Source: Patulibacter minatonensis DSM 18081
GTDB lineage: Bacteria > Actinomycetota > Thermoleophilia > Solirubrobacterales > Solirubrobacteraceae
DNA length: 64,000 nt
Reading direction: 5' to 3'
NCBI RefSeq assembly: GCF_000519325.1
Contig: NZ_KI912613.1
Location: 668,935 to 732,934, forward strand
In this document: piece after piece, positions 4,225 to 43,684 of the stretch
How positions within the stretch are numbered: position 1 is the first letter of the stretch
How the letters are laid out: every line of letters starts with the position of its first letter
Position numbers and translations under genes: made by a program
The notes under the pieces: generated by a model
The model's input: the letters and a program-made list of their open reading frames with translations, nothing else
What the model was told of the DNA's origin: nothing
The model's database searches: none

Positions 4225-5061
4225 CTACGGGCGGCCGGGACCGCCCGGACCCCCGGGGCCGCCCGGGCCGCCGGGACCGAAGCCGCCGGGACCGCCGAAG
4301 CCGCGACCGCCCGGTCCACCGGGACCGGTCGGCCGGGCGTCCTGCAGCGCCTTGGTCACCTTCGCCTCGTCGATGCCGAGCTCCTTGGCCAGCGCCGCCG
4401 TGAGCTCCTTCGCGCGGTCGGCGGGATCGGGCCGGGAGCCCTCCAGCGCCTTCCGGACGTCCGCCTCGGACTTGCCGGTCTTCTTCGCCAGCGCCGCGAC
4501 GAGGTCGTCGCCCCGGCCGGGGCCACGCCGGGCGTCGCGCTGCGCGTCGAGGACGGACTGCACGTCGGCCGCGTCGACCCCGAGGGCCTTCGCGATCGTC
4601 GCCGCCAGCTCCTTGGCGTGGTCGCCCTTCGCCGGCCGGACCTTCTCGAACGCCGCCTGCAGCTTCGCCTCGGTCACGCCCAGCGCCTTGGCCAGCGCGG
4701 CGCCGTCGACGCCGCGTCCCGGGCCGCCGGGTCCACCGTGGCCGCGACCGCCGAAGCCACGGCCCGGGCCGCCCTCGTGCGTGTCGGTGACCTTGAAGTC
4801 CTTGTCGAGCGTGACGCCGACCTCGGTGCCGTCGGCCTTGCGCACCCGGGCCTCGAACGTGCCGTCGGGCCGGCTCTGCACCCCGACGAGCGAGCCGCCC
4901 GGGACCTTCGCCAGCGCGGCCTCGGAGACCTTGCCGAACGTGTCGGTGCTCAGCGGCGTGGGCGACCCCGAGCCGGCGGTCGCGGCGTAGGCGCCGCCGG
5001 CGACCGCGAGGACGGCGACCGTCGCCATCGCGGCGGTCTTCTTCTTGAAGGAGCGGATCAT
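4225..5061 (-). CDS. secreted PepSY-like protein with helical repeats and Gly/Pro tail
   Basis: Exported 278-aa protein of unknown role. After MIRSFKKK comes a hydrophobic stretch (TAAMATVAVLAVAGGAYAA), which is a signal peptide. Residues about 35-95 (VPGGSLVGVQ, ADGTEVGVTLDKDFKVT) look like a PepSY-type domain found in many actinobacterial envelope proteins. Then follow about four helical repeats with the pattern LAxxLGVxxAxVxxAL and a C-terminal GGPGG-rich low-complexity tail. I chose the ATG at 5061 rather than an upstream start because the signal peptide begins there. It is divergent from the fetA-like gene across about 100 nt that contain three phased 10-bp repeats. Confidence 0.7.
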   Translation of the reverse strand: MIRSFKKKTAAMATVAVLAVAGGAYAATAGSGSPTPLSTDTFGKVSEAALAKVPGGSLVGVQSRPDGTFEARVRKADGTEVGVTLDKDFKVTDTHEGGPGRGFGGRGHGGPGGPGRGVDGAALAKALGVTEAKLQAAFEKVRPAKGDHAKELAATIAKALGVDAADVQSVLDAQRDARRGPGRGDDLVAALAKKTGKSEADVRKALEGSRPDPADRAKELTAALAKELGIDEAKVTKALQDARPTGPGGPGGRGFGGPGGFGPGGPGGPGGPGGPGRP

Positions 5062-33323: not shown

Positions 33324-34520
33324 ATGAGCAACCGCACGTTCGTGATCGGCGTCGGCATGACGACGTTCGACAAGCCCGGGACCAAGGAGGGCGGCTACCC
33401 GGAGTGGGCGAAGGAGGCCGGCGAGAAGGCGCTCGCCGACGCCGGCGTCGCCTACGACGCGGTGCAGCAGGCGTTCGTCGGCTACGTCTACGGCGACTCC
33501 ACCTCGGGCCAGCGCGCGATCTACACGCTCGGCCTGACGGGCATCCCGGTCGTCAACGTGAACAACAACTGCTCGACCGGGTCCTCCGCGCTGTTCCTCG
33601 CGCGCCAGGCGGTCAAGCACGGCGTGGCGGACTGTGCGATGGCGCTGGGCTTCGAGCAGATGGAGCGCGGCTCCCTGTCGATGAAGTTCCCCGACCACGC
33701 GAACCCGATGGGTCCGCACATGGAGCGCATGGCCGGCCTGCGCGCGCCGGAGGAGTCGCCGTTCGCGCCGCAGATGTTCGGCAACGCCGGACGCGACCAC
33801 ATGGAGCGCTACGGCTCGACGGCCGAGCACTTCGCGTGGATCGGCTGGAAGAACCACAAGCACTCCGTCAACAACCCGTACGCGCAGTTCCAGCAGGAGT
33901 ACTCGCTGGACGAGGTCAAGGGCGCGCGGATGATCCACGAGCCGCTGACGAAGCTCCAGTGCTCGCCGACCTCCGACGGCGCGGCCTGCGCGATCGTCGC
34001 GTCCGAGCGCTTCGTCGACGAGCACGACCTGTGGTCCCACGCCGTCGAGATCGCCGGCCAGGCGATGACGACCGACTACGCGTCGTCCTTCGCGGACGAG
34101 ACCGACTGCATGCGGATCGTCGGGTTCGACATGAGCAAGGCCGCCGCGGACCAGGCCTACGCCGAGGCCGGCATCGAGGCGTCGCAGGTCGACGTCGTCG
34201 AGCTCCACGACTGCTTCTCCGCCAACGAGCTGATCACGTACGAGGCGCTCGGCTTCGCGGAGATCGGGCACGGGCACGAGCTCGTCGAGGCGCAGGCGAC
34301 GACGTACGGCGGCGCCGGTCCGCTCGTCAACCCGTCGGGCGGCCTGATCTCGAAGGGTCACCCGCTCGGCGCCACCGGGCTGGCGCAGTGCTCCGAGCTC
34401 TGCTGGCAGCTGCGCGGCCAGGCCGACGCCCGGCAGCTCGACGGGGCGAAGGTCGCGCTGCAGCACAACATCGGGCTCGGCGGCGCGGCGGTCGTGACCG
34501 TGTACCGTCCGGCCACCTGA
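33324..34520 (+). CDS. SCP2/lipid-transfer-type thiolase
   Basis: Thiolase-fold protein of 398 aa of the sterol-carrier/lipid-transfer branch. The nucleophilic Cys is in [12 protein letters not shown], the family signature [13 protein letters not shown] near residue 295 and GHPLGATGL near 350. The C-terminal [12 protein letters not shown] replaces the classical CxG motif, as in SCP-x thiolases. It would cleave a 3-ketoacyl-CoA, possibly a branched or steroid side chain. The downstream TetR gene overlaps its stop. Confidence 0.88.
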
Positions 34521-35128
34521 GCGCCGAGGATCCCCCGAAGCCCAAGCAGGAGCGGAGCCTCCGTACCCGCGCAGCGCTCCTCGACGCCGCCGTCGAGGAG
34601 CTGCTCGCGCGCGGCTACGCGGACCTCTCGACCGCCGGCGTCGCCCGCCGCGCCGGCGTCTCCCGCGGGGCTCAGCAGCACCACTTCGCGTCGAAGGACG
34701 AGCTCCTGATCGAGGCGGTCCGGGAGCTCGCCGACCGCCGGATGAGCGAGCTGCGGGACGGTCTCGCGGGCGACGCGTCGCCGGAGGACCGCGTGCGACG
34801 CACCCTCGACCTCGCCGTCGAGCAGTACGCCGGGCCGCTGTTCGCCGCGACCCTGGAGCTCGGCCTCGCGGCCCGCGACAACGCCGACCTGCAGGCGGCG
34901 GTCGCCGACGGCGAGCGCACCGTCGGCCCGCAGATCCAGGCGATGGGCCGCGAGCTCCTCGCCCGGTCCGGACGAGACGCCGCGGAGCTCGACGCGCGCT
35001 GGACGATGGCGGTCTCGACCGCGCGCGGCTACGCGTCGCTGCTCCTCCTCGGCCACCCGCGGGACCGCGTGCTCGGCCAGTGGGCGTTCGCCCGCGAGCA
35101 GCTCGTGACGCTGCTGCTCGCGGGCTGA
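34517..35128 (+). CDS. TetR-family regulator with probable CTG start
   Basis: Regulator of 203 aa. The helix-turn-helix is at about 20-60 ([46 protein letters not shown]). The frame has no ATG, GTG or TTG near the expected N-terminus; the first Met is far inside, at about residue 76. A CTG at 34517 overlaps the thiolase TGA as CTGA and would give [14 protein letters not shown], a normal-length N-terminus. It probably controls the thiolase operon through the palindromes upstream and would sense an acyl-CoA. Confidence 0.78.
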
Positions 35129-35153
35129 CACCTCGGCGGCCGCGGAGCGCGCG

Positions 35154-35172
35154 CCCGGGTCGGGGACCCGGG
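35154..35172. terminator. hairpin between convergent genes
   Basis: An 8-bp perfect stem, CCCGGGTC with GACCCGGG, loop GGG, lies between the TetR stop and the convergent propeller-protein stop. Confidence 0.7.
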
Positions 35173-35180
35173 TCCACCGG

Positions 35181-36581
35181 TCAGCGCTTCAGCGTCACGG
35201 TGCCGCGGAGCTTCCCCGCCTTCAGGGTGAGCTTCACGGTGCGCTTCTTCGCGAGGGTCCGCTTCGCCTTCGCGGTGAACCGCAACGTGACCGCGACCTT
35301 GCCGGTCTTCCCGACCTTCGCCTTTCGGGACGCGACGGTCCTGCCGCCGGTGGTCGCGACGACCTTCACGGTGCCGGCCTTCGCGCCCGACAGCCGCACG
35401 GTGAGACCCTTCCTGAGGGCGGTCCGCAGGCCGACCTTCTTCTTCAGGGTGATCGCCGCGCCGTCCGGGGTCGTCGTGGTGTTCTTCGTGGGCTTCGGCT
35501 TCGTGGTCTCGTCGACGGGCTTCGTGACGGTGTCCTTCGGCGGGTTCGGGCGCGCCGGCGGGACGTCGGCGGGACCCCAGTCCGGGTTCGTCGCGCCCGG
35601 GATCAGGAGCTTCTGGACGTGCGCGTCGGTCGGGGTGCCGCAGTCGGTCGCGAACGACGGCAGCGGCAGGACGTGGATCCCCTGCTCGTCTCCGTAGGCG
35701 AGCCTCGTGCCGTCGGGCGACCACGACGGGGAGTTCACGCGGCCGACCGCGTCGTTGATCCGGTAGCAGTTCTCCGGCACGTACGGGTATCCGCCCTTCG
35801 CCCGGTAGAGCCACAGCTCCTTGTGCGCGGCGCCCGTCACGTACGCGAGCTTCTCCTTGTCCCGGCTCATCTCGCCGTCGGCCATGCCGTTCGCCGACGG
35901 GTCCTTGAACCAGCGGAGGATGGAGCCGGAGATGCCGTTGAGGTCGTCGCCGGGCGTGTGCTGGACGACGTCCTCGTTGCCGACCTGGATCGGGTCGGAG
36001 ATCAGGGTCGCGCCGCCGTCGCCGACCCACGAGGGGCCGACCCAGCCGGTCTGCTCCTGCCAGCCGGGCTTGTCGAACGGGCTCTTCCCGTCGGGCGAGA
36101 TGTAGTTCGTGCCCTGCCGGCCGTAGACCGTCTGGCAGCCGTTGGACGGGTTGCAGTTCGGGGTCTCGCCGAGCTGCGTGTAGTACCAGGAGTACGCGAT
36201 CTTCAGGCCGTCGGGCGAGATCGCCGGGTCGAACGGCCCGCGGAACTGCGTGCCGGGGTGCGTGTAGGAGTGCGGGGTCTTGATCTCGTAGCGCTTCGTG
36301 CCGTCGACGTTCACCGCGCGGTCCTGCGGGTCGAGGGTGACGATCCTGTCGTCGCGGAGCGCGACGATCTTGCCCGTGTCCGACTGCGACGCGGTCGAGT
36401 AGCCGCCGTCGAACGTCACCTGGTACTGGCGGGTGCCGTCGCTCGTCGACAGCCACACCTCACCGCCCTTGACGTAGGCGATCGAGTCGGCCGAGGCGGC
36501 GCCGGCGCCCAGGGCGAGGACGGCCGCGGAGGCCGCGAGGGTGGCGCCGAGGCGCCGGGGAAGACGTCGTTGAGTGCTCAT
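35181..36581 (-). CDS. secreted TolB/WD40-like beta-propeller protein
   Basis: Exported 466-aa protein. The signal peptide (LGATLAASAAVLALGAGAASA) follows MSTQRRLPRR; an upstream start at 36614 adds 11 residues without homology. Propeller blades are marked by IAYVKGGEVWLST, FDPAISPDGLKIAYSWY, MSRDKEKLAYVTG and SPSWSPDGTRLAYGDE. A Thr/Pro/Lys linker (about 355-385) leads to a Lys-rich beta domain (VRLSGAKAGTVKVVATTGG). Cys pairs (NCNPSNGCQ) suggest disulfides. Probably binds cell-surface material; no enzyme motif seen. Confidence 0.72.
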   Translation of the reverse strand: MSTQRRLPRRLGATLAASAAVLALGAGAASADSIAYVKGGEVWLSTSDGTRQYQVTFDGGYSTASQSDTGKIVALRDDRIVTLDPQDRAVNVDGTKRYEIKTPHSYTHPGTQFRGPFDPAISPDGLKIAYSWYYTQLGETPNCNPSNGCQTVYGRQGTNYISPDGKSPFDKPGWQEQTGWVGPSWVGDGGATLISDPIQVGNEDVVQHTPGDDLNGISGSILRWFKDPSANGMADGEMSRDKEKLAYVTGAAHKELWLYRAKGGYPYVPENCYRINDAVGRVNSPSWSPDGTRLAYGDEQGIHVLPLPSFATDCGTPTDAHVQKLLIPGATNPDWGPADVPPARPNPPKDTVTKPVDETTKPKPTKNTTTTPDGAAITLKKKVGLRTALRKGLTVRLSGAKAGTVKVVATTGGRTVASRKAKVGKTGKVAVTLRFTAKAKRTLAKKRTVKLTLKAGKLRGTVTLKR

Positions 36582-36633
36582 GCAGCCATCCTGCGATCCG
36601 GGGCCCGCGCGCACGACGGGGGACCACCCCCAT

Positions 36634-36664
36634 CCCCACCCCAGGGTTTCGGATCGGGGTGGGG
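36634..36664. repeat. 9-bp inverted repeat CCCCACCCC/GGGGTGGGG
   Basis: Perfect 9-bp arms at 36634-36642 and 36656-36664 with a 13-nt loop, in the 153-nt space between two divergent genes. Could be an operator or a transcript hairpin. Confidence 0.5.
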
Positions 36665-36734
36665 GCGCCGCTCGGGGTCACCCCGCACCGGCGACGACCG
36701 CCGACGCGCCAGATCGTCCGTAGAATCCCGCGCC

Positions 36735-39537
36735 GTGCCACACGGTCCGCTGCTGCAACGCGACGCCGAGATCTCCGCGCTGCGGACCGTCGTGCTGGAC
36801 GCCGCCGAGGGCCGCGGCGGCGTGCTGCTCTTCGAGGGGCCGGCGGGGATCGGCAAGACCGCGCTCGTGGACGCCGTGGTCCCGGTCGCGCAGGAGCACG
36901 GCGCGGCGGTGCTCGGCGCCCGGGCGTCCGAGCTCGACCGCGGGTTCGCGTTCGGTCTCGTCCACCAGCTGCTCGAGCCCGTCCTCGGGGCCCTCGACGA
37001 CGACGCGCGCGGGCGAGCCTTCGCGGGTGCGGCCGGCCGCGCGGCGGGCGTGTTCGCCCCGGAGGCCGCCGCCGAGGCGGGCGACCCCGGCTACGGCGTG
37101 CTCAGCGGGCTCTACTGGCTGCTCGCGAACCTCGCCGCGGAGCGCCCCCTCGTGCTGCGGGTCGACGACCTCCACTGGGCGGACGTCGCGTCCGTCCGCT
37201 TCCTCGAGTTCGTCGGCCGCCGGATCGACGACCTGCCCGTCGCGGTCGTCGCCAGCCTGCGGCCGAACGAGCCGGGCGCCCCGGAGGCCATGCTGCTCGA
37301 GCTCGCGCACGGCCCGACCGCCCGGACGCTCCGCCCCGCGCCCCTCGGACCCGACGCGGTCGCGACGCTGCTCCAGGGCAGCCTCGCCGACGCGCCCGAC
37401 GCGGCCTTCAGCGACGCTGCCGCCACCGCGACGGGGCGGCAACCCGCTGCTCGTCTCCGTGCTCGCCCGCGAGGCCGCGGCCGCCGGGCTGGCGGGCCGC
37501 GCCGAGGAGTCCGGCAGGCTCGCCGACCTCGGGAGCGACGAGGTCGGGACGATCGTCCAGCGCCGGCTCCGGGGCCTCGGCGAGCAGGCCGCGGCGGTCG
37601 CCCGGGCCGCGGCCGTCGCCGGGGAGCGCGCGGGCCCCGACGACCTGGTCGCCCTCTCCGGGCTGGGCGAGCAGGAGACCCGGACCGCCGTCGCGCTCCT
37701 CATCGACGCCGGCGTGCTCGAGCAGGGCGGCCGGTCGTTCGTGCACCCGCTCGTACGCGCGGCCGTGACCGCGACGATCCCGCGCGGCGAGCGCGCGCGG
37801 CTGCACGGCCTGACCGCCGAGCGCCTCCGGGCGCGCGGGGCCCGGGCGACGGAGGTCGCCGCCCACCGCCTGCTCGCCGAGCCCGCGGGCGATCCGGAGG
37901 CGGTCGCGGACCTGCGGGAGGCCGCCGGGGTCGCCGCGGGGGAGGGCGCGGTCGAGACCGCCGTCGAGCTGCTGCGTCGCGCCGTGCAAGAGCCGCCCGC
38001 CGCGGACGACCGCGCGGACGTCGAGATCGAGCTGGGGGAGCTCGAGCTGCGGGCCGAGCTGCCCGACGGGGTCCCGCGCCTGCGCCGGGCGCTGGAGGAC
38101 GGCCCGACCGGCGACCGTGCCGCGCGGGCGCGGGCGGCGCTCGCGTTCGTGCTCGTCCACACCGATCCGCGGGCCGCGCTCGACGAGGCCGAGCGGGCCC
38201 GTGCGGAGACCACCGACCGCGGGCTGCGGCTCCGCCTGGAGGCCCTGGAGCTCGAGGCCCTGACGTTCGTCGACGCGCTGGACACCGACCGCGTGGCGCG
38301 CATGCGGGCCGGGGCGGAGGACGCGTCGCCGTCGTCGGTGATGCTCTCCTACCTGGCGCTCGAGTCCTCGTGCGCCGGCCGGACGCCGGAGGAGACGATC
38401 GGGCTCGTCGGCCGGGCGACCGCCGACGGGACGCTCGACGCGGACGTCGGTCCCGCGAGCTCGACCTGGAACCTCCTGACCCACGCGCTCCGGTTCGCCG
38501 AGGACGCGGAGGGGTGCCGCCGGCTGCTCGAGGACGGCGAGGCCCGGATGCGCCGCGACGGCCTCCGTCTCGCCGGCCTGTTCGTGAACCAGTCGTGGGG
38601 GTACTGGCACCGCGACTTCGGGTCCGTCGCGACCGGGGCCGCCCGCGCGCAGCTCGGCCTCGACGCGGTCCGGGGCCTCGGGCTCGACGTCACCGCACCG
38701 GCGCTCGCGGCGATCACGGCCGAGAACCTCGTCCTGCTCGACCGTACCGAGGACGCGGCGTCGACCGTCGACGTGCCGCTCGGCGCCGCGGAGGGCACGT
38801 ACGTCGAGCCGTACGTCCTGAGCGCCCGCGCGCTCGTGCGCGCGCACCTGCGCCGCACCGCCGACGCCGAGGCCGACCTGCGCCGCGTGATCGCCGCCGG
38901 CGACGTCCGCGGCTGGACCTCGCCGCTGACGACCCGCGGGCGGCTGCGCCTGGCGGAGCTGCTCGCCACGCACGGGGACCGCGACGAGGCGCGCGAGCTC
39001 GCCGAGCACGACGTCGCCGTCGCCCGTGCGGCCGGCACCCCGGGCGCACTCGGCGCCGCGCTCCGCGTCCGCGCGCGGACCCTCGAGGGCGACGAGCGGG
39101 TCGAGGCCCTGCGCGAGTCCGTCGACGTCCTCGCGCCGGGGCCGATGGCGATGGAGCACGGCTGGGCGCTCCTCGACCTCGGGGGCGCGCTGCGCCGCCG
39201 CGGCTCCCGCTCCGACGCCCGCGACGTCCTCCGCGTCGCCCTGGACCGCGCCGCCGGCGCCGAGTCCGTGCTGCTCGCCCGCCTCGTCCGCGAGGAGCTC
39301 GAGGCCGCAGGCGCGCGTCCCCGGCGCGAACGGCTCAGCGGCGTCGAGTCGCTGACCCCGAGCGAGCGCCGGGTCGCGGAGCTCGCCGCCGAGGGCCTCA
39401 GCAACCGCGAGATCGCGGAGACCCTGTGGGTCACCCGCAAGACCGTCGAGCACCACCTGGGCCACGCCTACGGCAAGCTCGGGATCAGCTCCCGGACTGG
39501 CCTGCCGGCGGCGCTGGGACTCGTCGCGACGGGGTAG
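36735..39537 (+). pseudogene. large LuxR-family ATPase regulator, frameshifted
   Basis: MalT/LAL-type regulator that would be about 933 aa. The first part (frame from the GTG at 36735) has Walker A FEGPAGIGKTAL and Walker B LVLRVDDLHWAD. The rest, in the next frame, has TPR-like helical repeats and a C-terminal LuxR HTH (LTPSERRVAELAAEGLSNRE, then TVEHHLGHAYGKLGI). The frames switch exactly in the conserved TGGNPLLV motif: the run GGGG at 37433-37436 has one G too many. Removing one G restores a single reading frame. Codon use is intact on both sides, so the break is recent or a sequencing error. TAGAAT at 36721-36726 suggests a leaderless start. Confidence 0.85.
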
Positions 39538-39582
39538 TCGCGGGGGCCGCAGCGGCGCCGCGGTCGCGGACCCCGAGGCCGT

Positions 39583-39870
39583 TCAGTCCCCGGTCCTGCG
39601 CCGCCACAGCGTCGTCACCGCGAAGGCGATGCAGGTCGCCGCGACCGCGAGGCCGCCGATCTGCAGCACCTCGACGTCCGCGACGATCCCGATCAGCCCG
39701 ACGACGGCCGCGACGCCGAACACGAACTCGAGGGCGCGCCGCCTCGGGGGCTGCGACGCGTCGGCGGCCGCGAGGAACGCGCTGACGGCGGCGAGGAGGA
39801 TGAGGACGACGGAGGTGACGTCGATGCCCCCGAGGGGGACCCCCGACGGATCCACGGCCCATGCACGCAT
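39583..39870 (-). CDS. small membrane protein
   Basis: Protein of 95 aa with three hydrophobic stretches (VTSVVLILLAAVSAFLAAA, EFVFGVAAVVGLIGIVA and IGGLAVAATCIAFAVTTLW), a short PPRRR loop and a charged WRRRTGD tail. The ATG at 39870 was taken because the membrane segments start soon after. It is not a family I recognise. It is convergent with the broken LuxR gene and divergent from the acyl-CoA synthetase. Confidence 0.55.
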   Translation of the reverse strand: MRAWAVDPSGVPLGGIDVTSVVLILLAAVSAFLAAADASQPPRRRALEFVFGVAAVVGLIGIVADVEVLQIGGLAVAATCIAFAVTTLWRRRTGD

Positions 39871-40016
39871 GACGCCAGCGTACGAGCTCCCCGACCCGTC
39901 CGTGGCGGTCGGCGTTGGGGCGGCGCACAGCACCGCGGTGATCGTCGCCTCCGCTCGGACCCGCTCCCGGCGAGGATCGGACGACCGACCGCCGCGCCCG
40001 ACGAGGACCCGCACCC

Positions 40017-41687
40017 ATGAGCATCGACGTCACGACCCTGCACGGCCGCCGCGCCACCGACCGCTGGAACCGGATGGTGATCGCCGACGTGCTGGAGCGC
40101 GTCACGTGGAGCCGGCCGGACAAGGACGCGCTCGTCGGGTGGCCGGGCGCCTACGCGACCCCGGAGTTCGCGCGGGTCACGTACTCCGAGGCCGACCGCG
40201 CCTGCAACCGGATCGCGCAGGCGCTCGCGGCGGAGGGGCTGGAGCGCAGCGACCGCGTGCTCCTCTACTGCGAGAACTCGATCGAGGCGATCCTCAGCCT
40301 CATCGGGATCGCGAAGGCCGGGCTCGTCGCGGTGCCGATCAACCCGCTGCTCGCGCCCGACGTGCTCGCGTGGGTCGTCGAGCACGTCGAGCCGCGCTTC
40401 GCGATCGTCGACGGCGCGCACCGCGAGAAGGCCGACGCGGTCCTCGTGCCCGCGGGCGTCGCGTCGTCGGTGACGATCCCGATCGGCGGCGACGCGACCC
40501 CCGACGCCCCGGCGTTCGCGGACTGGATCGCGGACCGGCCGGAGGACGAGGTCGTCGTCGAGCCCGCGCTGCACGCCGACGACGTGTGGAGCCTGCTCTT
40601 CACGTCGGGCACGACGGCGATGCCGAAGGCCGTGATGGCGACGAACACCTACTCGTACGCGGCGTCCTACCCCTACACGCTGTCCCTGACCCGCGGCCTG
40701 CGGTTCGAGGACGAGCTCCGCCACCTCTGCTTCCTGCCGGTGATCTACCACTGCGGGCACCACGCGACGCTGTTCGCGTCGTGCCTGGCGGGCGGGACGA
40801 TGGTGATCGGCCGGAAGCCCGTGGCGACCGAGATCGCGCAGGCGATCACGGCCGAGCGGGCGACGTCGGTCTGGGCGGGCGCGCCGCAGTTCGTGCAGGG
40901 CATCGCGGACGCCGCGCTGGCGGACCCGGACGGGATCGACATCTCGAGCCTGACCGTCGCGATGTTCTCCTGGGGCGCGATGCGGCAGGACATGAGCGAG
41001 ACCGTCGCCCGCGCGGCCGGCGGCGGGCACGTCGAGCTGCTGGAGGTCTTCGGCCAGACGGAGGCGATGTCGTGCTTCCGCTTCTGGCCCGACCGGGAGC
41101 CGGAGAAGCTCGCCGAGGCTGTCCGCGGGACGAACCACGTGGGTGTCCCGACGCCGATCCTCGCCGCGACGATCATGGACGCCGAGGGCCGGCTCCTGCG
41201 CGGCGAGCCGGGCGTCGCCGGCGAGGCGGTCTACCGCTCGCCGGCCGTGACGGCGGGCTACTACAAGAACCCGGAGGCCACGGAGGAGGCGTTCGCCGGC
41301 GGCTGGTTCCACTCCGGCGACAGCTGCCGCTACGAGCCCGACGGCACCCAGGTCATGGTCGACCGCTACAAGGACATCGTGAAGTCGGGTGGCGAGAACG
41401 TCTCGAGCATCCGCGTGGAGGCCGTCGCCCAGCAGCACCCGGCCGTCGCCCGCGTCGCCGTGGTCGGCCTGCCGGACGAGAAGTGGGGCGAGGTCGTCAC
41501 CGCCGTCGTCGAGGTCACGCCCGGCGCCGAGCTCGACCCGGCCGAGCTGATCGCGTTCTGCCGCGAGCGCCTCGCGGGCCACGAGAGCCCGAAGCGGGTC
41601 GAGGTCGTCGACGAGCTGCCCCTCACCGTCGGCGGCAAGGTCCTGAAGTACCGCCTGCGGCAGCGGTTCGCGGACGCGCCGGCGTAG
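40017..41687 (+). CDS. AMP-dependent acyl-CoA synthetase/ligase
   Basis: Adenylate-forming ligase of 556 aa, activating a carboxylic acid to its CoA thioester. The P-loop-like A3 motif is LLFTSGTTAMPKAV (about 197-210; Ala-Met where Gly-x is usual), FGQTEAMS is A5, GWFHSGDSC is A7, DRYKDIVKSGGENVSS is A8 and the catalytic Lys is in TVGGKVLKYRL. The N-terminus is ordinary length. A thioesterase and an LLM enzyme lie beside it. It may feed fatty or aromatic acids into beta-oxidation; specificity unknown. Confidence 0.92.
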   Translation: MSIDVTTLHGRRATDRWNRMVIADVLERVTWSRPDKDALVGWPGAYATPEFARVTYSEADRACNRIAQALAAEGLERSDRVLLYCENSIEAILSLIGIAKAGLVAVPINPLLAPDVLAWVVEHVEPRFAIVDGAHREKADAVLVPAGVASSVTIPIGGDATPDAPAFADWIADRPEDEVVVEPALHADDVWSLLFTSGTTAMPKAVMATNTYSYAASYPYTLSLTRGLRFEDELRHLCFLPVIYHCGHHATLFASCLAGGTMVIGRKPVATEIAQAITAERATSVWAGAPQFVQGIADAALADPDGIDISSLTVAMFSWGAMRQDMSETVARAAGGGHVELLEVFGQTEAMSCFRFWPDREPEKLAEAVRGTNHVGVPTPILAATIMDAEGRLLRGEPGVAGEAVYRSPAVTAGYYKNPEATEEAFAGGWFHSGDSCRYEPDGTQVMVDRYKDIVKSGGENVSSIRVEAVAQQHPAVARVAVVGLPDEKWGEVVTAVVEVTPGAELDPAELIAFCRERLAGHESPKRVEVVDELPLTVGGKVLKYRLRQRFADAPA

Positions 41688-41736
41688 GCGGCCGCACGGG
41701 GTCGGGACGGCACGACCGCGACCGCGGCGCACCGAC

Positions 41737-41750
41737 CGCGACCGGTCGCG
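41737..41750. terminator. palindrome between convergent genes
   Basis: CGCGACCGGTCGCG is a perfect 14-bp palindrome immediately before the thioesterase stop, between convergent genes. It could act as a terminator hairpin, although with almost no loop it is a weaker case than others here. Confidence 0.4.
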
Positions 41751-42569
41751 TCAGACCGCCGTGCAGGTCGCCGTGCCGATCGCGCACGGCTTGCCGTCGG
41801 CGCGCAGGACCTGGGCGCCGACCACTGCGGCGGTGCGGCCGCGGTAGCTCGTCGCCGTCCGGACGTGGACCGCGCCGTCGACCGGTCCCGGCCGCACGTA
41901 GGTCATGTGCAGCGACGCGACGCGGAGCGGGGCGACGGCCGCGGCGACCGCCTCGACGGCGAGCGCGAACTGGATCCCGCCGTGCATCGTGCCGCCAGGG
42001 TTCGCGAGTCCCGGGACGGCCTCGAGCACGACCTCCGCCTCGCCGTCGACGCCGATCACCCCGCGGGCGCCGAGCATCGTGAGCAGGTCCCCGTCGTCCG
42101 GGCCGTCCCGCGCGGGCGCGGGGACGGGCGGCAGCGGATCGCCCGGCACGAACCGCACCCGCTGGGTCGCGACCGCCAGGGTCTGCCCGCCCGCGCCCTC
42201 CACGGTGCCGGTCGCGACGGCCGCGGACGCATCGCGGTGACCCGTGGTCGCCCGCGCCGTCAGCACCCCACCGTCGCCGGGCAGCGCCGCGCAGAACGTC
42301 GCGTACAGATCGATCGTCACGCCCCAGTGACGCTCGGGACGGTGTGCCACGGCGGTGCCGCCGAGGACGACGTCGAGCAGCACCCCGAGCGCCGCGTGGC
42401 TCGGCGTCCCGTCGGCACCGAGGATCCACGGCCCCGTGCGCATCGTGCCGACGCAGTCGTACGCGTCGCCGCCGACGTCCACCACCCGGAAGGCGTGCTC
42501 GGGCCCGCTCGGGACGTACGGGACGGGTGGGCCGGGGGAGCCGGGGCCCGCGGCGTGCGCGTGGTCCAT
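41751..42569 (-). CDS. double-hotdog acyl-CoA thioesterase-like protein
   Basis: Protein of 272 aa with two hotdog halves, hydrolysing acyl-CoA thioesters. The second half carries NPGGTMHGGIQFALAVEAV, the HGG motif of the PaaI/YdiI group, and ASLHMTYVRPGPVDG. The first half has GTPSHAALGVLLDVVLGG in the same structural place. The ATG at 42569 gives a short disordered Ala/Pro-rich N-terminus. Opposite in direction to the acyl-CoA synthetase but probably in the same metabolic area. Confidence 0.78.
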   Translation of the reverse strand: MDHAHAAGPGSPGPPVPYVPSGPEHAFRVVDVGGDAYDCVGTMRTGPWILGADGTPSHAALGVLLDVVLGGTAVAHRPERHWGVTIDLYATFCAALPGDGGVLTARATTGHRDASAAVATGTVEGAGGQTLAVATQRVRFVPGDPLPPVPAPARDGPDDGDLLTMLGARGVIGVDGEAEVVLEAVPGLANPGGTMHGGIQFALAVEAVAAAVAPLRVASLHMTYVRPGPVDGAVHVRTATSYRGRTAAVVGAQVLRADGKPCAIGTATCTAV

Positions 42570-42667
42570 GCACCCATCCTCCCGCGCGGCGGGCCCGGGC
42601 GGGGGTCCGATCGTCGCGGACGTCGGGGTGACGGACAACGGCCCGGCGCGTCGGCCATGATGCCGCC

Positions 42668-43684
42668 ATGCTCGCCGACACCGGTTCCTACGCCCAGTCC
42701 GTCGACGCCGCCGCGGCCGGTGCCGCGGACGCCGAGGCCCGCGGGTTCGACGGGTGGCACGCGATCGAGACGCAGTGCGACCCGTTCCTCTCGTGCGCGG
42801 TCGCCGCCGAGCGGACGGAGCGGATCGAGCTCATGACCGGCATCGCGGTCGCCTTCGCCCGCAACCCGATGAGCGTCGCGGTCCAGGCGAACGACCTGCA
42901 GGCGCTGTCGGGCGGGCGGTTCCTGCTCGGACTCGGGTCGCAGATCCGGCCGCACATCACGAAGCGCTACTCGATGCCGTGGGGCAAGCCCGCCGCGCGG
43001 ATGCGGGAGTTCGTGCTGGCGATCCGCGCGATCTGGGAGGCCTGGGAGACCGGCGGCGAGCTGAACTTCCGCGGCGAGTTCTACAAGCACACGCTGATGA
43101 CCCCGTTCTTCGACCCGGGCCCCAACCCGCACGGGAACCCGCCGATCCTGCTGGCGGCCGTCGGTCCCCTGATGACCCGGACCGCGGGCGAGGTCGCCGA
43201 CGGGATGCTCTGCCACCACTTCTCGACCGAGCGCTACGTCCGCGAGGCGACGATCCCGAAGCTCCTCGAGGGCCGCGAGCTGGCGGGGAAGCACGACCTC
43301 GACGGGTTCCAGGTCACGGCGCCCGCGATGATCGCGGTCGGCGACACCGAGGAGGAGCTGACGAAGGCCATCGCCTCGGTGAAGGAGCGCCTCGCGTTCT
43401 ACGGCTCGACCCCGGCGTACCGGCCGCCGCTGGAGCTCCACGGCTGGGGCGACCTCCAGGACGACCTCAACCTCCTCAGCAAGCGCGGCGCGTGGGACGA
43501 GATGACGGCCCTGATCAGTGACGAGGTGCTCCACGAGTTCGCGGCCGTCGGGACGCCCGAGGAGGCGATCGACGAGGTCCTCCGCCGCTACGGCGACACG
43601 TGCAGCCGGATCACCGTCCCCGTCCCCGAGGGTGCGGACCCCGAGCGTTGGCGGGGCCTGTTCGAACGGCTGCGGCAGGGGTAA
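42668..43684 (+). CDS. F420/LLM-type flavin-dependent oxidoreductase
   Basis: Luciferase-like enzyme of 338 aa. It has [33 protein letters not shown], the substrate/cofactor stretch [16 protein letters not shown], and [22 protein letters not shown]. The match is to the TIGR03617-type F420-dependent group common in actinobacteria. CATGAT (42656-42661) 6 nt before the ATG suggests a leaderless transcript. The physiological substrate is unknown. The NTF2-fold gene follows after 118 nt. Confidence 0.87.

What the first reader, a model, noticed from the sequence alone, without database searches (positions are those of the whole stretch)
37433..37436. One-base insertion breaks a large LuxR-ATPase regulator in its TGGNPLLV motif
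Before the GGGG run the protein reads in one frame, after it in the next, and deleting one G joins them exactly in a conserved motif. Both halves keep normal codon use, so it is a recent inactivation, a phase-variable tract or a base-calling error.
Basis: seen in the sequence. Interest (0 to 1): 0.5.

Follow-up and report, generated by a model that had tools for sequence, protein, structure and literature searches.

The report
Isolated frameshift in a LuxR-type regulator
A large bacterial gene regulator is split across two reading frames at a short run of G; relatives carry it whole, so this looks like an ordinary sequencing error or a recent knock-out rather than a new mechanism.

Summary
The window lies in a single 5.52 Mb record, probably a Patulibacter. 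A large LuxR-family ATP-binding regulator (LAL) starts at 36735, reads in one frame up to GGGG at 37433-37436, and from there in the +1 frame to the stop at 39537. The first half has the AAA_16 ATPase domain, the second the GerE helix-turn-helix. A frame model made without homology puts the switch at 37431-37432. In 37 of 42 relatives and paralogues both halves are in one frame. An exact pattern of the broken junction occurs in 1 of 146 family genomes, this one.

Nothing supports phase variation (only four G) or programmed frameshifting (not conserved, no unusual RNA fold). A scan of 1.2 Mb elsewhere in the genome (60% sensitive) showed no other clear case, but a second +1 break was met in a MalT-like gene (L057), also at a four-base run. 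Best reading: a non-conserved singleton frameshift, either a consensus error (about 0.52) or a very recent null mutation (about 0.40). Only reads can separate them. Ordinary.

The parts
36735..37436 (+). Upstream half of the LAL regulator gene, GTG start, AAA_16 ATPase domain (234 codons)
   Evidence: Translation; AAA_16 1.8e-19; start supported by the match to L047 from residue 1
36837..36860 (+). Walker A motif GPAGIGKT
   Evidence: Read from the translation; the name of the motif is recalled
37433..37436 (+). GGGG run at which the reading frame moves by +1
   Evidence: Sequence; frame model; GC phase
37435..39537 (+). Downstream half in the +1 frame: GGNPLLV motif, helical sensor region, LuxR helix-turn-helix, stop
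   Evidence: Translation; GerE 9.1e-13
39346..39501 (+). GerE (LuxR-type) helix-turn-helix
   Evidence: Residues 638-689 of the downstream half; coordinates by arithmetic
37437..39785 (+). Out-of-frame continuation of the upstream frame (no stop until 39785)
   Evidence: ORF 35619-39785
35181..36614 (-). Neighbouring PD40 (WD40-like propeller) gene, also next to the orthologue in L047 and L050
   Evidence: Pfam; synteny

Best explanation
An ordinary LAL-type transcription regulator (N-terminal AAA_16 ATPase, helical sensor region, C-terminal LuxR helix-turn-helix) carries a non-conserved one-base frameshift at a GGGG run, in the conserved GGNP motif that follows the ATPase domain. Shown: the shift itself, one-frame copies in relatives, and no other lesion in either half. 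Inferred: if the base is real, the cell makes an ATPase fragment with a long meaningless tail and no DNA-binding domain, so the regulator is null. I judge a consensus error in this GC-rich assembly with 100-N runs slightly more likely (about 0.52) than a genuine, very recent null mutation (about 0.40). In neither case is the run a switch or a recoding signal.
For: Both halves carry the expected domains and are in one frame in 37 of 42 related loci. The junction pattern is in 1 of 146 family genomes, this one. Codon-position differences to the nearest relative are those of a constrained gene in both halves, and none of eight relative-rate comparisons shows a significant excess on the window lineage. 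In 1.264 Mb this is the only clear mid-gene shift not at an N run, so no wide decay or recoding habit is seen. A second +1 shift at a four-base run in L057 and 14 runs of exactly 100 N in 1.264 Mb favour error. PMC3711429 expects homology-supported singletons to be mostly sequencing errors (passages).
Against: The near absence of other shifts in the sampled genome argues against a generally poor consensus and so for a true mutation, though sensitivity was only 96 of 160. No read data, sequencing platform or second isolate were available. Divergence to the nearest relative (67%) is too large to date the event.
Confidence: 0.92

Rival explanations
1. Genuine recent null mutation (young pseudogene): the base was inserted in the living strain and the regulator is off. 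This is the second branch of the best explanation, stated alone.
For: The rest of the sampled genome is nearly free of mid-gene shifts. The genome keeps 14 other strong AAA_16 genes, 12 of them seen in one frame, so loss of one may be tolerated (tolerance is inference).
Against: No sign of relaxed constraint in either half. PMC3711429 argues that shifts away from the 3' end of a singleton are comparatively more likely errors (passages).
Confidence: 0.4
2. Programmed or leaky +1 ribosomal frameshifting at GGG-C yields the full-length regulator at reduced level.
For: GGG followed by C allows a +1 slip that keeps Gly-Gly-Asn-Pro (reading). The L057 break is likewise at a four-base run, CCCC-G. 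That such runs are slip-prone is recalled.
Against: The site is not conserved: 37 of 42 loci need no shift and the pattern is in 1 of 146 genomes. The downstream RNA fold is no stronger than shuffles (z = 0.97). No stop or rare codon follows in the zero frame near the site apart from CAA (0.5 per 1000 codons in five neighbouring genes), which is in position +2.
Confidence: 0.04
3. Phase-variable G tract switching the regulator on and off.
For: A homopolymer lies at the break.
Against: Four G only; runs of exactly four G/C number 6746 in 864 kb, and published screens used 7 nt or more. Relatives vary these codons between GGC, GGG, GGT and GGA and keep no tract.
Confidence: 0.02
4. Two separate genes, an ATPase and a DNA-binding protein, that happen to overlap.
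For: The +1 frame is open from 37027 with a GTG.
Against: The upstream frame has no stop near the junction, so a first gene would not end there. Coding signal in the first frame runs right up to the run. Relatives encode one protein.
Confidence: 0.02

Closest known systems
[quoted passage not shown] e.g. SCO0877 and SCO7173 of Streptomyces coelicolor, PMC3282765, passages read)
   Same: Large size, N-terminal Walker A ATPase domain, C-terminal LuxR helix-turn-helix
   Different: Here the two parts are in different frames as printed
Singleton frameshifted genes of the GeneTack survey, class hypothetical pseudogene or error (PMC3711429, abstract and passages read)
   Same: One genome only, homology and Pfam support on both sides, no repeat of 7 nt or more, no conserved recoding signal
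   Different: No difference found in kind; the survey used complete genomes, while this record holds runs of 100 N

Membership tests
LAL regulator | N-terminal ATP-binding domain with Walker A | tested here: met
   AAA_16 1.8e-19; GPAGIGKT
LAL regulator | C-terminal LuxR-type helix-turn-helix | tested here: met
   GerE 9.1e-13
LAL regulator | Both domains in one large protein | tested here: not met
   As printed the halves are in different frames; met in 37 of 42 related loci. So it is filed as a broken copy of a LAL gene, not as a working LAL
Singleton frameshift (hypothetical pseudogene or error) | Break not shared with other genomes; homology supports one protein across the shift | tested here: met
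Phase-variable gene | Repeat tract of 7 nt or more at the shift | tested here: not met
   Four G; criterion
Phase-variable gene | Mixed tract lengths in reads or between isolates | not testable with these tools
   No reads and no second isolate
Programmed frameshift gene | Conserved shift site across genomes | tested here: not met
   1 of 146 genomes by exact pattern; 37 of 42 loci need no shift
Programmed frameshift gene | Full-length product made from the shifted allele | not testable with these tools
   Needs a reporter or proteomics

The most novel reading that the evidence does not exclude
In this genome large ATPase-type (STAND/LuxR) regulators are being silenced, or held at low expression, by +1 frame moves at short Gly/Pro runs: GGGG-C here, CCCC-G in the MalT-like gene of L057. 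Leaky +1 slippage on GGG and CCC would still give a trickle of full-length regulator.
Probability: 0.04. Interest if true: 0.5.

Novelty: already known. Interest (0 to 1): 0.1.

Why it matters
Mainly a caution for annotation: an automatic annotator may call this gene a pseudogene or take a wrong 1016-residue ORF, because the shifted frame stays open for 2.3 kb at 74% GC. If the base is real, the strain has lost one of about fifteen large AAA_16-type regulators. It says nothing new about mechanism.

Tried and rejected
Phase variation, programmed recoding and a two-gene reading were tested and rejected (see rivals).

A generally poor consensus was tested with an ab initio frame model on 60 stretches of 20 kb plus the window. 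It listed 13 transitions open by more than 60 nt on both sides: 6 and 7. One is the finding. I read the other 12 by eye. Seven are ordinary gene ends or starts or intergenic stretches (L073, L077, L090, L094; L171, L172 and one of three in L169). Two are at 100-N runs (L085 and another in L169). One is a Ser/Thr-rich stretch that stays in one frame (L169). Two are short spurious segments (L173). Sensitivity was 62 of 80 simulated indels with a looser filter and 96 of 160 with the final one. Control genomes under the final filter gave 2 candidates in 200 kb (G019) and 1 in 200 kb (G015). One of the G019 ones is by eye a broken decarboxylase-like gene (L098); the other two were not examined.

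The frame change in own-genome paralogue L055 was first taken for a second break; it is set aside because a 100-N run lies between its halves. Of the 42 loci, 37 read in one frame, 1 (L055) did not, and 4 (L034, L038, L054, L056) scored in only one half; L034 starts at a contig end. L042 counts among the 37 for the junction tested, but has a separate break further upstream. In one search the upstream slice of L041 was cut at its end. The pattern carries this gene's own flanks and would miss the same kind of break with other codons. Paper searches did not identify the strain or its sequencing platform.

Full report
Setting. The window is bases 668935-732934 of a single 5.52 Mb record, completeness 95.5%. 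The closest named relative of the gene lies in a Patulibacter MAG, NTP18, at 67% identity. Its 8896-base contig matches G003:C293 in length and match, and G003 is labelled 'same genus'. So the genus is probably Patulibacter; this is an inference.

The observation. GGGG is at 37433-37436. From the GTG at 36735 the frame reads an AAA_16 ATPase (1.8e-19; residues 6-172) up to ...AAATATG. From 37435 the +1 frame reads GGNPLLVSVLAREA... to a GerE helix-turn-helix (9.1e-13) and a stop at 39537. GC by codon position changes phase across the run. A seven-state frame model trained on this genome places the switch at 37431-37432 with no knowledge of homologues. The first frame stays open to 39785, so the product as printed would be 1016 residues, of which 782 are out of frame.

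Relatives. The downstream half finds matches in 60 of 61 genomes, the window's own included. I took 42 distinct loci, leaving out duplicate fetches and the window's own copy. In 37 both halves align in one frame. In 1 (L055, own genome) they do not, because a 100-N run lies between them. In 4 only one half scored. A motif search, which by construction looks for Walker A and the GGNP motif in one frame, found it in 26 of the 42; the glycine codons vary between GGC, GGG, GGT and GGA. The exact junction of the window, with its flanks, occurs in 1 of 146 genomes of the family, this one. The nearest relative L047 and the more distant L050 share the PD40 neighbour, which supports orthology.

State of the two halves. 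Against L047, differences at codon positions 1/2/3 are 0.20/0.21/0.42 upstream and 0.21/0.20/0.44 downstream. Eight relative-rate comparisons (two halves, four outgroups) show no significant excess on the window lineage. The one above the 5% level (upstream half, outgroup L052, chi2 4.33) has the excess on L047's side. In one (downstream half, outgroup L052) the window has more unique changes, 82 against 67, not significantly (chi2 1.51). Both halves thus look like a gene kept under constraint until recently, but with a nearest relative at 67% the event cannot be dated closely.

How common are such breaks here? In 1.264 Mb of the genome (window plus 60 stretches of 20 kb; 1.11 Mb called coding) the frame model listed 13 transitions with more than 60 nt open on both sides. 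After reading each, the finding is the only clear mid-gene shift that is not at an N run. Sensitivity was 96 of 160 simulated indels. Of the 14 other strong AAA_16 genes of this genome (E at most 1.4e-17), 12 are in one frame and 2 are interrupted by 100-N runs. One further true shift turned up in a neighbour of one of these genes, outside the random sample. In L057 near 4746 a MalT-like gene reads ...WLSLDERDDD in one frame and PEHLRAHLRAAL... in the +1 frame, at CCCC followed by GG. Of seven relatives' loci fetched for it (L180-L186), six match both halves, all in one frame, and L182 matches only the second half. Neither half reaches a Pfam cut-off, so 'MalT-like' rests on those relatives and on recalled motifs.

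Mechanism. LAL regulators are defined by size, a Walker A ATP-binding domain and a C-terminal LuxR helix-turn-helix (PMC3282765, passages). The GGNP motif after the ATPase core resembles the GxP motif of STAND ATPases (recalled, not tested). A shift there would leave the nucleotide-binding core but remove the sensor region and the DNA-binding domain, so the protein should be null. This is inference.

Cause. The GeneTack survey treats unclustered frameshifts with homology support as hypothetical pseudogene or error and expects sequencing errors to dominate. It used repeats of at least 7 nt for phase variation and a conserved site for programmed frameshifting (PMC3711429, abstract and passages). 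This case meets the singleton description and fails the other two. Arguments for error: 14 runs of exactly 100 N in 1.264 Mb, which I read as assembly gaps although the tool also prints N for withheld bases; a GC-rich stem that begins at the run (though the whole fold is no stronger than shuffles); and a second shift of the same direction at a four-base run. Arguments for mutation: the sampled rest of the genome is nearly free of shifts. I give error about 0.52, recent mutation about 0.40 and everything else about 0.08.

Verdict. The finding is a correct reading of the sequence, but of an ordinary kind.

Noticed in passing
L057 around 4746 (+ strand), own genome: A second +1 frameshift in this genome: a MalT-like ATPase regulator gene breaks at CCCC followed by GG, next to an intact LAL gene on the other strand. 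Six of seven relatives' loci match both halves, all in one frame; the seventh matches one half only.
   Followed up: partly
window 35181-36614, with L047 and L050: The PD40 gene stands divergent from the LAL gene in the window, but in tandem with it (same strand, just upstream) in L047 and L050, so this gene has been flipped in one lineage.
   Followed up: no
L042 (G028:C4), around 4230-4310: A relative's LAL gene changes frame inside the ATPase domain, at another place than the window's break.
   Followed up: no
L098 (G019) around 14401: In a relative, a decarboxylase-like gene looks broken by a frame change (by eye).
   Followed up: no
own genome, sampled stretches: Runs of exactly 100 N recur (14 in 1.264 Mb), so the single record is probably a gapped scaffold, and 2 of 14 other strong AAA_16 genes are interrupted by such runs.
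   Followed up: no
window 33324-43684: The LAL gene sits among acyl-CoA genes: thiolase, TetR regulator, AMP-binding ligase, 4HBT thioesterase, and a luciferase-like monooxygenase. No regulatory link was tested.
   Followed up: no
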